From Mayamaea pseudoterrestris (lineage: Eukaryota > Bacillariophyta > Bacillariophyceae > Sellaphorales > Sellaphoraceae), in the NCBI GenBank assembly GCA_027923505.1, contig BROI01000021.1:496001-560000 (forward strand): a DNA stretch of 64,000 nucleotides. The letters are read 5' to 3'. A model generated the notes under the pieces. That model did not search any database, was not told the origin of the DNA, and saw nothing but the letters and a program-made list of their open reading frames with translations. The translations under genes and the position numbers were made by a program. Shown in pieces: positions 11,830 to 56,477 of the stretch; positions within the stretch are counted from its first letter, which is position 1, and each line of letters begins with the position of its first letter.

Positions 11830-14800
11830 ATGGATGATAGTAATTGCAATAGGCAGAGCGATGGCGCCAGAAACAGAGATCAAGAATTGTTGGTCAACGA
11901 TGATTACAGACCAGCCAGCACCACCATAGACATGACGATCTCAAATGAATCGTCTACGAACGACAAGAAAGATCAACTATTGAATCAAGCATTCACAGGG
12001 TCCGCTGCGGAGAGCTTGTTCTCGCTGGAAAAAGACAAAGCGGCTAAGCAAGCCTCAGAGTCTGGGCGGCCATTGGCTTTAGATATTAGCACTAAAGCTG
12101 CTCAAGCTGCGTCCTCTCTTGTATTCACTGCCACGCAGTTGGAGCGCGAAATTTTGACAGAGGCTTTTGTTGCCTCTCCGATTCAGCATTCAGTCCATCC
12201 TGGGGCCGTGGCAGTTGCTGAATTAGGAGGTACTGCCGCCGTCACTTTTACATCGTTGGAGCGCGACATTGCAGCGAAATGCATCGCCTCGCCAGGGCGA
12301 TCAAGTCAGTTAGAGCAAGATGTGTTAGCAAAAACATCGAGCATGCCTGTGGATAGCGCAGTTCAACTTGGAGAGGACCATGGGTCATATGCTCCAGCTT
12401 CATATAATAGGAGCAGTGCTAGTAAATCAGATTTTTCCGCATTGGAGCGAGATATTGCAGCAAAAAGTAAAGCGAGTCAGGGACGTTTGCTAGCAACCCA
12501 ACTGAGCGCTATTGAAGGCCGTGGACTCAAGCGCCTGGAACAGGATGTTCTTGCCAAGGCATCTGCTGGCCGCGAAGGCCACAGTCGCCCTGGAGCATCA
12601 CACGAGGTTGGACTAACTCGCTTAGAACAGGATGTTCTTGTGAAAGCATCAGCTACTAGACGCACCGGAAGAGCGCCTGATGTAAATGGCGAACTGAGTA
12701 TCGCCGCTTTAGAACGGGACGTTGCATTAAAGTCAGTCGCCCAAACAAGACTGGTGAATGACGCGCCTCGGTTGGATCATTTGGAGCAGGAAATTCTCGC
12801 GAAAGCATCCGGCAAGCTATGCGGTCCGAGTAGCCAGCCTGGTGTGGTTTCTGTTGATGGAGTCAGAAGTCTTTCTGCTGTGGAAAGAGACGTTTCTTTG
12901 AAGAGACAAGGCCATCGCGGTGATAACTCGACTCGAATACTTACGCCACCGGCCGATCGTGTCAGGGAATCATTAAATGACTTGGAACGAGACGTTCATG
13001 TCAAAATTACTGTTGGAGCTGGCGCAGATAGACCTGGCTTAGTCGCAGTTGATCCTCCAATTCAGCCTGCTAATGCATCGCTTAACACTTTGGAGAGCGA
13101 TATCTTGGCAAAGATGTCAATCGGGCCGGATGGCAGCGAAACCAGAAACCCTGGGGCGGCACACATCACTGAACTTCCGAAACTTTTAATCAGTGGCGCG
13201 TCGATGCATTCTGTAGATTCAGCTCTCAGTCGTCAAATATCGGCGCCACGCAGTTCGACGTCCGGCTGTTCCACAAGGCTTGAGAAAAGGAATAATCTGT
13301 CAGCACTTGAGGATGACATTTTAAGAAAGTCATACGGACATGTTCCTTCTAGCCCTTCTGTTGTAATGTCGCGTCGACAACCCCAAAGTTTGAAAGACGC
13401 GGAGAATGAGATATTGAGTGCGCCATCGGCGGAGTCGGATTTGGCGGAACCACGTGAATATACAGAGTCGCGGCACCAGTCACCGGCAGTCATGTCTGTT
13501 GTCGTTCCTGAAGCCCCATTGGAGGGAGAACGATTTTCAGAATATGGGGTCCAGGATGTCGTAGTTCCAACCGACGGGATTGAAGCATTTGTTGCAGACA
13601 ATGTTGTAGACGCTACCGGCGTCACGGTAATTGCGAGCGAAGAAGAGGAAGAAAAGAGAAATTGGTCGAGGCAGAAGAAACGACTTTGTTTCTTGGGCAT
13701 ATTTTTTGTCGCCATCGTCATTGCCCTTGTGGTCGCCATTGCTGTGGCGATTGATAAGCGCGAGAATGGTTTAAGGCCAATGCCAGCACCTTCTGGAGCT
13801 CCGACGGCGGCACCTACGGTAGCACCCACGTCAAGCGCTTTTGCGGCACTTATCCAGAACCTCTCGTCCATATCTGTTGAAAATGCCTTTGCTACCAAAG
13901 ACAGTTTTCAGTACATGGCCGCCGAATGGTTGTATGACGAGGATACGTATGGTATTGCTTTGTCATCAAGCAACCCGGCTTTTTTGGAACGATACGCCCT
14001 GGCAGTTGTATATTTTGCGCTGGGGGGTCCGTTGTGGCACATTTGTGGCCAGAGCGACGAGACATGCACTGGTAACTCTGGTATCAATAACTGGCTATCG
14101 CCTACGGATATTTGCACTTGGTATGGCATCACATGTGGCGCAGATAAATTTGTGGAGGAATTCGTTTTTCGTAAGTTGTTTTGCTCAACCTTTTCATTAC
14201 CGATATATCAAGGCTCATTAATTCGCTTTATAATGTTACAGGCGCCGGGACTGACTCAGAATTCAGCGAAAATGACTTGATGCTGGATGGCGAGCTTCCA
14301 CGTGAGATTACGCTGTTGACCCAGCTATCAGCTTTCATTGCCGATGGTTTTCAAATCAGTGGTTCCATCACTGATACCTTTTCGAACTCCTCGAAGCTGC
14401 AAACCCTGATCCTCTCGAACAATAATATATCAGGCGAGATTCCTAATTCATTCGCGATCAATAATCCGGAGTTGCAGACCATCATTTTCAGTAATAATCA
14501 GATGACAGGTACATTGCCTTCAACGATTGGACAGCTAGCGAGACTCGTCTTTCTCCAGCTAAATGGGAATGCGTTTGGTGGTACAATCAACGCTAACATA
14601 TTTGCAATGACCACATCTCTGCAAAGACTCGAGTTGCAAAGTAACCAGATTTCGGGCCAATTCCCTAGGTCTTGGTATGCATTAAAGGATTTAGAGATAC
14701 TACGGGCAGATGATACGAACTTGAGAGGCCTCCTACGAAGCGAAATCGGCCAAATGGACAATCTGCGGGAGCTTGATTTGTCTCGCTCGCTGATGAGTGG

Positions 14801-15140
14801 GTCGTTGCCGTCAGAACTGTATAGGCTCGCAAATCTTACCGCATTAAGATTGAGCGATGCACTGTTTACCGGAAGTTTAGCCGAAGATATTCGGTTTTTG
14901 AACAGAACCCTCCAAGTCGCCTACTTTGATGGTAATGGCTTGACAGGATCTATTCCAGTTGACGGGCTGGGAGCGCTGACGAGTCTGAATGAGCTGCAAC
15001 TTTATGGTAACGATCTGACTGGAGCAATCACATCCACGTCCAGACTCTGTGGCCTTGTGTTTGACAGCCAGATTCAGCTAATCAGGACGGACTGCAGCAT
15101 TGCCTGCGACTGCTGCGCTAAATGCGAACCTGGATTGTAA
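11830..15140 (+). CDS. Single-pass LRR membrane protein with N-terminal 14-copy LExDxxxK repeat region
   Basis: Two exons, 11830-14170 and 14242-15140, coding 1079 residues; the 71-nt intron joins in frame. The open frame starts at a TTG at 11827, but the ATG at 11830 (MDDSNCN) is the natural start. Residues about 60-530 hold fourteen short repeats with the pattern L-E-x-D/E-x-x-x-K (for example LERDIAAK, LEQDVLAK). A basic-flanked hydrophobic helix lies at about 619-642 (GIFFVAIVIALVVAIAVAI), followed by a P/A/T-rich linker (APTAAPTVAPTS) and then an LRR block from about residue 800 to 1050 with N-x-x-S/T-G-x-I/L-P consensus. No kinase domain is present. The likely topology is N-terminus cytosolic and LRR outside. 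Such LRR proteins are common in diatoms; ligands are unknown. Confidence 0.87.
12019..13425 (+). repeat. Fourteen degenerate LExDxxxK coding repeats
   Basis: In the LRR protein, about fourteen copies of an eight-residue core occur at irregular spacing, roughly 17-75 residues apart. Cores begin near 12028, 12139, 12259, 12310, 12442, 12535, 12622, 12709, 12781, 12880, 12982, 13090, 13309 and 13399. Early copies alternate between an LERD-IAAK form and an LEQD-VLAK form; later copies are more diverged, and the last lacks the Lys. The core is amphipathic and probably helical. Spacers are low-complexity and rich in S, A, G, P and R. Confidence 0.85.
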
Positions 15141-54050: not shown

Positions 54051-56477
54051 ATGATGAAAGAATTTTCCTTTCTTCTTGTTCTGTCGACTGTATGTTTGCT
54101 GCCATTCGTCGTTCGCGGTGGCAGCGGCTCCGATGAGCTTGACTCGCTGTTGAATCAGCCATTCGCAGCTTCTGTCACAAAACTCCAGCATGCTCCATGT
54201 ACGACTTTGTTTTACCGAGATGGCCGCGTCGGATGCGGAACGCAGGAGCGCTCCAATCAAGTCGGGGAGCTGGTCTACTTTGGCGGAAGCAGCAACGGAT
54301 TGTCGGGTCGAGATGAACCCTACGTGGCCGTCATGGAGGACTATATGCTGACAGCCAAAAGCTTAAATACTCTCTTAGCTGCTCGAAAGAATAATGGGCT
54401 GTTACAAGGCATTTTGGTACTCAACGCGACCAATCATGAGGATGATACGAAGGATGCGGATGATGCATCCAATACGCATAGATCACCAGATGCGCAGGCT
54501 CCGCAAGGTTACGGCACGCCATCGGAACAACTCAGCAGCTGCAATGGCATGAACAATTATGCGTATGCGTGGAACAGCAAAGGAGAAGGACTCTTTCACT
54601 ATGATCTATTTGGATTACCTATGGCCTATGTGTTGGACTCGGACGTTTCAGATGCCTTGCGACTTGAATCCCAGCTAGCGAAATCGTCATCGACTTCGAC
54701 GACATCATCTTCACACAGTACCAGCAGTGTTGTTGCCGATTTTAACTATTATATGGGCATGGACGGCATTAATAGCAAGCAGTGTTTGGCATGGAAGGAT
54801 GCAGCGACGGGTGATTGGGTGCCGAAGTGCTTGCCTCTCGGTGGTACAAGTGTCTGGGCATCTGCTGGTTCACCGTCTCTCTCTTCGGCACCGTCATCAA
54901 GCGCCAGTAGTAGCAATGGCGGTGAAGGCCGGTCTGTCGTCATGGTGGCGGGGTCAATGGATTCAACGAGCTTGTTTCATGACGTTGTTCCTGGGGCAAA
55001 CACGGCGGCGTCAAACATTCTCACATTGTTGATGGCAGCGAAATTGATAGGAGATAATGTTGACGATGATACTTTGGATGGACTGACAAGCCAAATTGTC
55101 TTTGCCTTGTTCCAGGGAGAATCCTTTGGTTTTTTGGGGTCGCGCTCCTTCCTGCGCGATGTCACCAGCTTTTCCTGCAACGGATCACCCGTTCGATCTG
55201 TCTATCGTATGGGCGATAAGTCTGATTACGCATGTTTAAATCCAGTCCGTCCAAGTCTCGCATTTACAGGACTTGGAACCATCAATGGAATGATTTCCGT
55301 TGATCAGGTTGGCCATGAAGTCGCCAGTGGATTATTATATGTTCACGCCGACAACAACAATGACAAGTTTGGCAAATTTCTGTCAAATGTCATGCTCAGC
55401 TCGAGTACCAGTGCCGTATCGGTAGCCAAAGCGTCAACCAATAACAATGGCAATGGATACCCGTATCCACCGACCCCGCTGACGTCTCTCCTTTCTGTGT
55501 CGGAAGGCGCAATTGGCGGCGCTGTGTTGACGGGCTATGACTATGCGTTCACAACTAAGGTTCCGTACCACTCACACATGGACTCTGCTACGGTGAACTC
55601 GATCAAAATTGATTCCATAGCTGGAGCTGCTACAATATTAGCTCGTGCCGCTGTTGCTGCTGCATACGATGGGGCCGTCAACTACGATTCCGACACGGCG
55701 TCGGCCTATGCGGCAAATCTCATTCCAGAGTTGAGCGAATCTGACTCGACCCTAAAGCAGCTGGCTAATTGTCTGTATCAGAATGCAGGCTGCTCGCTTA
55801 TCAGAACGTATGCCAGTGTGGAAATGGCGAATGAACGAGCGCGCACTGGGCTGGGCTTGGGCAGTGGAGTAGCGTTCGACAGTAATGGGCGTCAACCAAA
55901 CTATTTTTCAGGAGTATACAATGGATATTACGGACAACCGTTTGTGCAAGTTGGCGATGGTATTTACGGAGCATACGACGGAAGGGATTACGGTAAGAAG
56001 CAAACGGACGCCGTCGGTATCGTACCACGACAGTTGTCGAGTGCATTGCGTGGAATATTGAATGACTTTTTGGGAAGAGGCAAGATTAAAAGCACCGGCG
56101 CTAAATTCATCACGTGCGAAAAGCTTTCTGACTGCGACGATGTCGAGTATTGTCCGAATAATAATGAGACGCCGACTTGCACTGGTGGAGGTGTCTGCGT
56201 CTGCGGTCGTGCACACTATCACATGGCTTTGGACGAAGCCCTCCAGCCAGCAAATGGCATGCCGACGGGCTACTTTGAAGTTTCTGCCAGCGACGAGGGC
56301 TTAACGCCCATTTGGACTGAGCCGTTTTGGTCAAATGATGTTGGCGTCCAGATTTATCGGCAAGTTGGATGGATGCCTGGCTTCTTCACTCTCGTGGCTG
56401 GCCTGGCAGCTGCAGGAATATCCATGTTTGGAGCATTTGTGCTCAAGGTTGGCCTAAAGAAAGAGAAGCTCTACTGA
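54051..56477 (+). CDS. NCSTN: Nicastrin-like gamma-secretase subunit
   Basis: A type I membrane glycoprotein of 808 residues with signal peptide (FSFLLVLSTVCLLPFVVRG) and a C-terminal membrane helix (GFFTLVAGLAAAGISMFGAF) plus a short basic tail. The nicastrin pattern is clear: CTTLFYRDGRVGCGT, then CLAWKDAATGDWVPKCLPL, LGGTSVWASAGSP, and the peptidase-like segment VVMVAGSMDSTSLFHDVVPGA, IVFALFQGESFGFLGSRSFL. Nicastrin gates substrate entry to presenilin. A Ser/Thr run (SSSTSTTSSSHSTSS) interrupts the ectodomain, and an insert near residue 135 is Asp/Asn-rich. A late Cys-rich stretch (CPNNNETPTCTGGGVCVCG) is EGF-like. Confidence 0.9.
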   Translation: MMKEFSFLLVLSTVCLLPFVVRGGSGSDELDSLLNQPFAASVTKLQHAPCTTLFYRDGRVGCGTQERSNQVGELVYFGGSSNGLSGRDEPYVAVMEDYMLTAKSLNTLLAARKNNGLLQGILVLNATNHEDDTKDADDASNTHRSPDAQAPQGYGTPSEQLSSCNGMNNYAYAWNSKGEGLFHYDLFGLPMAYVLDSDVSDALRLESQLAKSSSTSTTSSSHSTSSVVADFNYYMGMDGINSKQCLAWKDAATGDWVPKCLPLGGTSVWASAGSPSLSSAPSSSASSSNGGEGRSVVMVAGSMDSTSLFHDVVPGANTAASNILTLLMAAKLIGDNVDDDTLDGLTSQIVFALFQGESFGFLGSRSFLRDVTSFSCNGSPVRSVYRMGDKSDYACLNPVRPSLAFTGLGTINGMISVDQVGHEVASGLLYVHADNNNDKFGKFLSNVMLSSSTSAVSVAKASTNNNGNGYPYPPTPLTSLLSVSEGAIGGAVLTGYDYAFTTKVPYHSHMDSATVNSIKIDSIAGAATILARAAVAAAYDGAVNYDSDTASAYAANLIPELSESDSTLKQLANCLYQNAGCSLIRTYASVEMANERARTGLGLGSGVAFDSNGRQPNYFSGVYNGYYGQPFVQVGDGIYGAYDGRDYGKKQTDAVGIVPRQLSSALRGILNDFLGRGKIKSTGAKFITCEKLSDCDDVEYCPNNNETPTCTGGGVCVCGRAHYHMALDEALQPANGMPTGYFEVSASDEGLTPIWTEPFWSNDVGVQIYRQVGWMPGFFTLVAGLAAAGISMFGAFVLKVGLKKEKLY

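What the first reader, a model, noticed from the sequence alone, without database searches (positions are those of the whole stretch)
12019..13425. Fourteen LExDxxxK motifs in the cytosolic half of an LRR membrane protein
The sequence shows about 14 copies of an 8-residue amphipathic core, in the early copies alternating between LERD-IAAK and LEQD-VLAK, in a disordered N-terminal region before a single membrane helix and an external LRR block. A regular spaced motif with variable spacers suggests a multivalent binding array (scaffold or adaptor docking) that relays LRR binding at the surface to the cytosol in a receptor with no kinase. I recall similar repeats in other diatom LRR proteins but know no assigned function.
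Basis: partly seen in the sequence, partly recalled or inferred. Interest (0 to 1): 0.75.

Follow-up and report, generated by a model that had tools for sequence, protein, structure and literature searches.

The report
Helical motif array in diatom LRR protein
A membrane protein of what is probably a diatom, with a leucine-rich outer part and no kinase, carries eleven clear copies of a short helix-like motif in its other, probably inner, half, and a second protein of the same type in the same genome carries the motif too, so it may be an unrecognised docking site through which such kinase-less receptors recruit partners.

Summary
The repeat is real. The gene (11830-15140, one intron, 1079 aa) has 10 exact LExDxxxK matches, or 11 clean plus 3 degenerate cores; none of 20,000 shuffles reaches 11. 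The unit is longer than reported: Φxx-L-E-x-D-[IV]-x-A-K, with a hydrophobic residue at -3 in 10 of 11 copies, a position not used to pick them. Between copies, synonymous sites are near saturation while motif residues stay fixed; flanks show no constraint. It is the only LE.D[IVM]..K cluster found in its 30.6 Mb genome. New here: a second gene (contig C6) has five L[ED]xx[IVL]x[AE]K cores, all with the -3 hydrophobic, upstream of TM, N-cap and LRRs, also without a kinase in Pfam. These two are the only array carriers among 37 N-cap LRR genes whose upstream DNA I held, so the motif goes with this architecture but is not general. Viral and prokaryotic collections gave no relative; no other eukaryote could be searched. 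Best reading: a flexible chain of helical docking sites in a kinase-less LRR receptor or adhesion protein. Partner and function are inferred. It resembles paxillin LD motifs in design but fails their consensus.

The parts
11830..14170 (+). exon 1: disordered N-terminal half with the motif array, TM helix, P/T linker, LRR N-cap
   Evidence: open frame from ATG; intron with GT..AG; found in own genome at 100%
14171..14241 (+). intron, 71 bases, GT..AG
   Evidence: splice carries the frame into the LRR block
14242..15140 (+). exon 2: LRR block and C-terminal cysteine-rich cap
   Evidence: Pfam LRR_8, LRR_4 and LRR_1 over their cut-offs
12025..12048 (+). degenerate core LEKDKAAK
12139..12162 (+). 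degenerate core LEREILTE
12256..12279 (+). core LERDIAAK
12310..12333 (+). core LEQDVLAK
12442..12465 (+). core LERDIAAK
12535..12558 (+). core LEQDVLAK
12622..12645 (+). core LEQDVLVK
12709..12732 (+). core LERDVALK
12781..12804 (+). core LEQEILAK
12880..12903 (+). core VERDVSLK
12982..13005 (+). core LERDVHVK
13090..13113 (+). core LESDILAK
13306..13329 (+). core LEDDILRK
13399..13422 (+). degenerate core AENEILSA
12199..13167 (+). five PG[AVL]..(.)[VI] linker motifs, starting at 12199, 12589, 12838, 13033 and 13150
   Evidence: none of 20,000 shuffles reaches 5; pattern chosen after the fact
13684..13752 (+). single TM helix (aa 619-641); 6 K/R in the 15 residues on the N side against 3 on the C side
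   Evidence: hydropathy 3.27, charge count
13780..13830 (+). P/T-rich linker (APTAAPTVAPT)
   Evidence: translation
13882..14154 (+). N-cap domain shared with other LRR proteins of this genome
   Evidence: 13-sequence alignment A2, invariant A, W, R, W, C

Best explanation
The gene encodes a single-pass, kinase-less LRR membrane protein whose N-terminal half, most likely cytosolic, is a flexible chain bearing 11 clear (up to 14) short amphipathic helices of the form Φxx-L-E-x-D-[IV]-x-A-K, mostly 24-44 residues apart. Each helix presents three hydrophobic side chains (-3, 0, +4) and a fixed charge pattern (E+1, D+3, K+7) to a folded cytosolic partner; the array would recruit many partner copies, or cross-link a multivalent one, when the LRR part is engaged or clustered. 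Shown: the repeat, its likeness kept against near-saturated synonymous change, the TM segment, the LRRs, and a second gene with the same motif and architecture. Inferred: topology, helix formation, binding, multivalent recruitment and any signalling or adhesion role.
For: Motif count far above shuffles. Hydrophobic -3 in 10 of 11 copies here and 5 of 5 in C6, although -3 was not used to choose the copies (binomial 3e-6 and 1e-4). Pooled over all pairs of the 11 copies, pS 0.95 against pN 0.14 at the six key positions, while pN/pS is 0.90-0.98 in the flanks. Genome-wide, 51 places fit LE.D[IVM]..K (reversed-pattern control 48), 9 of them in this gene, the only cluster. Second array gene at C6. 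No kinase or other enzyme domain in Pfam for either protein (C6 only for the 735 aa held). Helix over most cores in a low-confidence model. Published diatom TM-LRR proteins without a recognisable kinase exist and are hypothesised to be pheromone receptors or adhesion molecules (MRP2, MRM2; PMC6261938, passages read).
Against: No partner is known; none of six motif strings occurs in the paper library. The array alone finds no homologue by tblastn in its own genome (E up to 10), in IMG/VR or in GTDB genomes. Only 2 of 37 family genes have it, so the others must work without it. A profile of the window copies alone finds C6 only weakly (12.0 bits; next unrelated ORF 9.6), and C6 does not stand out in the unsupervised pattern test (5 against 4 in shuffles). 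Copies were picked for their amino acids, which lowers pN by construction. Helix prediction is from one sequence at pLDDT about 42. Vinculin, the one LD-type partner looked for, was not found, in a search with no positive control.
Confidence: 0.5

Rival explanations
1. Neutral or weakly constrained relic: an old tandem duplication of a unit of about 33 residues in a disordered tail, tolerated but with no binding role.
For: Spacing is irregular (18-72 residues); three copies are decayed; N-terminal halves of the 12 paralogues read are otherwise very different from each other; 35 of 37 family genes lack the array.
Against: Synonymous sites are near saturation while motif residues stay alike and flanks do not (with the selection bias stated); the same motif recurs in a second, distantly related gene (27% identity over the TM and N-cap stretch).
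Confidence: 0.2
2. Self-association: the helices pair with each other within or between molecules (short coiled coil or bundle) and cluster the receptor without a separate partner.
For: The -3, 0, +4 hydrophobic spacing is that of a helix of one and a half heptads; many similar copies per chain.
Against: Eleven residues is short for a stable coiled coil; +7, where the hydrophobic stripe would go on, is lysine in 12 of all 14 window copies (in the 16 picked copies K+7 is fixed by the pick); no confident helix packing in the model (pTM 0.16).
Confidence: 0.15
3. Phosphorylation or membrane-surface platform: residues after each core are kinase sites, or the helices lie on the inner membrane face.
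For: S or T one or two residues after K+7 in 9 of 11 window copies; a basic stretch just before the TM helix.
Against: Only 1 of 5 C6 copies has such an S or T; the protein is S-rich anyway (12.7%); the helices are short, of mixed charge and with a narrow hydrophobic face, unlike typical membrane-binding helices (inference).
Confidence: 0.1

Closest known systems
Kinase-less transmembrane LRR proteins of diatoms (MRP2, MRM2 of Pseudo-nitzschia multistriata)
   Same: TM region plus LRR domain, no recognisable kinase domain (PMC6261938, passages).
   Different: No N-terminal motif array is mentioned in the passages read; the sequences could not be compared here.
LD motifs of paxillin (class I LDXLLXXL; inverse class II with D/E+6 L+7)
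   Same: Several short amphipathic helices in an N-terminal region; counted from our -3, the motif has a hydrophobic residue at 0, 3 and 7 and mostly D/E at 6, as class II (PMC7703752, sections 17 and 18 and passages).
   Different: Position 4 is acidic instead of L; there are 11-14 copies instead of 4-5; the array is in a membrane protein.
Plant LRR receptor-like proteins and LRR-RLKs
   Same: LRR part with a capping domain and a TM helix.
   Different: Here the LRR is C-terminal to the TM segment, and the other side carries a motif array and no kinase (plant side recalled, not tested).

Membership tests
N-cap LRR family of this genome | N-cap with the majority pattern SPQ..A..W, QRYALAT.YY, WLS...EC.WYG | tested here: met
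   alignment of 13 members, including this one; 12 other tblastn matches, E 4e-11 to 3e-4
N-cap LRR family of this genome | TM helix upstream of the N-cap (33 of 37 held members have a TM-like stretch) and LRRs downstream | tested here: met
   hydropathy peak 3.27, Pfam LRR models over cut-off
LRR receptor kinases (LRR-RLK) | protein kinase domain | tested here: not met
   no kinase among the 7 Pfam families at E up to 1; none for the C6 protein either, 735 aa held
LD motif (paxillin), class I | LDXLLXXL with leucine at +3, +4 and +7 | tested here: not met
   +3 is D in 11 of 16 copies, the rest R, E, A or Q; +7 is K in 12 of 14 window copies
LD motif, inverse class II | LxxLLxxL with D/E at +6 and L at +7 (counted from our -3) | tested here: not met
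   position 4 is E or D, not L, in 16 of 16 copies (acidic by the pick); positions 0, 3 and 7 are hydrophobic in 15, 16 and 16, position 6 is D/E in 12 of 16
LD motif signalling | an LD-binding partner such as vinculin in the genome | tested here: inconclusive
   no PF01044 match, but the search rang in none of the 14 control genomes; other LD-binding domains not tested
Same motif array in other diatoms | orthologous or similar arrays in other species | not testable with these tools
   no eukaryote collection on hand; viral and prokaryote scans negative

The most novel reading that the evidence does not exclude
ΦxxLExDΦxAK is an undescribed docking motif read by a specific folded partner, and diatoms use tandem arrays of it in kinase-less LRR receptors as a route by which surface recognition (mates, bacteria or substrate) recruits a signalling or cytoskeletal complex.
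Probability: 0.25. Interest if true: 0.75.

Novelty: new variant of a known kind. Interest (0 to 1): 0.5.

Why it matters
This genome has at least 51 N-cap LRR places (three of them in one frame on C24, merged), and diatom TM-LRR proteins without a recognisable kinase have been proposed as mating receptors (PMC6261938, passages); how such proteins could signal is, as far as I know, open. A repeated motif kept in the probable cytosolic half of two of them gives a concrete bait for finding a first partner. Whether the other N-cap genes lack kinases was not tested here.

Tried and rejected
The hit in L060 (LERDIDEK) is a single copy. C9, C15 and C24 pairs of LE.D[IVM]..K places lie 33, 12 and 4 kb apart and form no array. 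Searches list 100 of 109 and 100 of 116 places (controls 63 and 46); by the order of the lists the missing 9 and 16 lie on the last contigs, so a further loose-motif array there is not excluded (one search lists all 51). These DNA searches skip simple repeats and very common words. The PDB search of the N-terminal half gave two chance-level matches, both PilO (E 0.78 and 0.87). Paxillin LD membership was considered and rejected on the consensus. The first genome search used an arbitrary pattern only to learn what genome is held; its matches mean nothing. Viral and prokaryotic scans found no relative. The second AlphaFold job, the fold searches and the covariance tools were not used.

Full report
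What the sequence is. The gene runs from 11830 to 15140 on the plus strand with one 71-base GT..AG intron and encodes 1079 aa. Order of parts: a 618-residue N-terminal half rich in S and A; one TM helix (aa 619-641) with 6 K/R in the 15 residues before it and 3 after it; a P/T linker; an N-cap domain; LRRs (Pfam LRR_8, LRR_4 and LRR_1 over cut-off); a cysteine-rich end. Pfam shows no kinase. The host genome G000 is 30.6 Mb in 41 contigs and holds silicon transporters (10 Silic_transp matches, 9 over cut-off), so a diatom is likely; the species was not determined, and silicon transporters also occur outside diatoms (a title in the listing).

The observation. Exact LE.D...K occurs 10 times (shuffle mean 0.012, at most 2 in 20,000). 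[LV][ED]..[IV]..K occurs 11 times in the N-terminal half (mean 0.07, at most 2 in 20,000). A search for any repeated 4-position pattern, without naming the motif, puts this one first (12 occurrences; at most 5 in 12 shuffles); of the 28 other N-termini that passed the TM and length filter, none exceeds its shuffles by more than 1, and the C6 gene below is one of the two at +1.

Position -3 is hydrophobic in 10 of 11 copies (binomial 3e-6), and spacers hold five PG[AVL]..[VI] stretches (none of 20,000 shuffles reaches 5; a pattern chosen after seeing the sequence). Across all pairs of the 11 copies, synonymous differences per site are 0.95 at the six key positions against 0.14 for nonsynonymous; in the flanks the two are close (0.73 and 0.71; 0.75 and 0.68; 0.76 and 0.73). 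The copies are therefore not recent duplicates. The caution is that copies were chosen by amino-acid pattern, which lowers the nonsynonymous figure; position -3 is the check free of that bias.

Genome-wide. The DNA form of LE.D[IVM]..K has 51 places (reversed control 48); nine lie in this gene and there is no other cluster among the 51. Loosening to L-E-x-x-[IVM]-x-A-K (109 places, 100 listed; control 63) and L-D-x-x-[IVM]-x-A-K (116 places, 100 listed; control 46) showed one second cluster in the listed places, on C6 (three and one places). These patterns also admit F for L. That gene (C6:1196653-1198164, minus, for aa 1-504) has five cores, LDQRLAEK, LEGDVQAK, LEAAIQAK, LEDQVQAK and LDQRIAAK (5 against a mean of 0.003, none of 20,000 shuffles reaches 5; pattern fitted to these copies), each with a hydrophobic residue at -3, two PG linkers (27 of 20,000 shuffles reach 2), then a TM helix (2.84), an N-cap and LRRs (LRR_1 and LRR_8 over cut-off, no kinase in the 735 aa held). 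The two proteins are only distantly related elsewhere (27% identity, 22.7 bits), and tblastn with the window array alone does not link them. A profile of the 11 window copies ranks C6 first among other ORFs, but weakly (12.0 bits, one copy over 3 bits; next 9.6; best shuffle 4.6). A 16-copy profile that includes C6 finds all five, which is no independent test.

Family frequency. Searches give 51 gene-level N-cap places, three of them in one frame. For 37 I held upstream sequence; 2 of 37 carry the array (this gene 11 units, C6 5 units), the other 35 have no unit over 6 bits. The two carriers entered the set as the finding itself and through the motif search, so the unbiased part is 0 of 35. 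In 10 of those 35 the upstream frame reached the edge of the held DNA, and 14 places were not held. The array is a minority feature of this family.

Beyond this genome. No relative of the array was found in IMG/VR (one scan each for the window and the C6 array) or GTDB genomes (one scan); these scans find close relatives only. None of six motif strings occurs in the paper library.

Mechanism. The N-terminal half is predicted mostly unstructured (493 of 621 residues under pLDDT 50), with helices over most cores: 11 of 14 have at least 6 of 8 residues in helix against 5.8 by sliding the positions, reached in 272 of 20,000 slides. It is a single-sequence model and weak evidence. Hydrophobics at -3, 0 and +4 with fixed E, D and K suggest a helix that docks on a groove; repetition, mostly every 24-44 residues, suggests multivalent recruitment. 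Paxillin LD motifs work in this way: amphipathic helices docking on a hydrophobic patch, with their negative charge facing basic residues (PMC7703752, passages and sections 17 and 18). The present motif resembles the inverse class but has an acidic residue where LD motifs have leucine, so it is not filed there. Vinculin was not found, without a working control. In Pseudo-nitzschia, TM-LRR proteins MRP2 and MRM2, without a recognisable kinase domain, are hypothesised to be pheromone receptors or adhesion molecules (PMC6261938, passages), and many LRR genes respond to bacterial signal compounds in Seminavis (PMC7296067, passages). These make a receptor or adhesion role plausible but do not test it.

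Verdict. Observation confirmed and sharpened; interpretation partly supported; function inferred. A second array gene of the same architecture is the strongest new evidence.

Noticed in passing
G000:C1:2970661-2974680 (minus): One open frame of 1445 aa holds three silicon-transporter domains in a row, like the multi-SIT genes reported for Synedra (PMC6114903, abstract and outline).
   Followed up: no
G000:C6:1196653-1198164 (minus), L009 and L090: Second TM-LRR gene with an array of the same motif; followed as part of the finding.
   Followed up: yes
L024 (C2:1552908, minus): Upstream part made of 14 [ST]E.PS[DNS]VP units before the LRR N-cap, with a start that looks like a signal peptide by eye and no clear TM stretch next to the N-cap.
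   Followed up: no
G000:C24:123093-128798 (plus): One open frame of 2692 aa with three N-cap matches and several LRR matches, apparently a fused tandem of LRR ectodomains.
   Followed up: no
window 54051-56477 (plus): Nicastrin-like protein, both Pfam lobes over cut-off.
   Followed up: no
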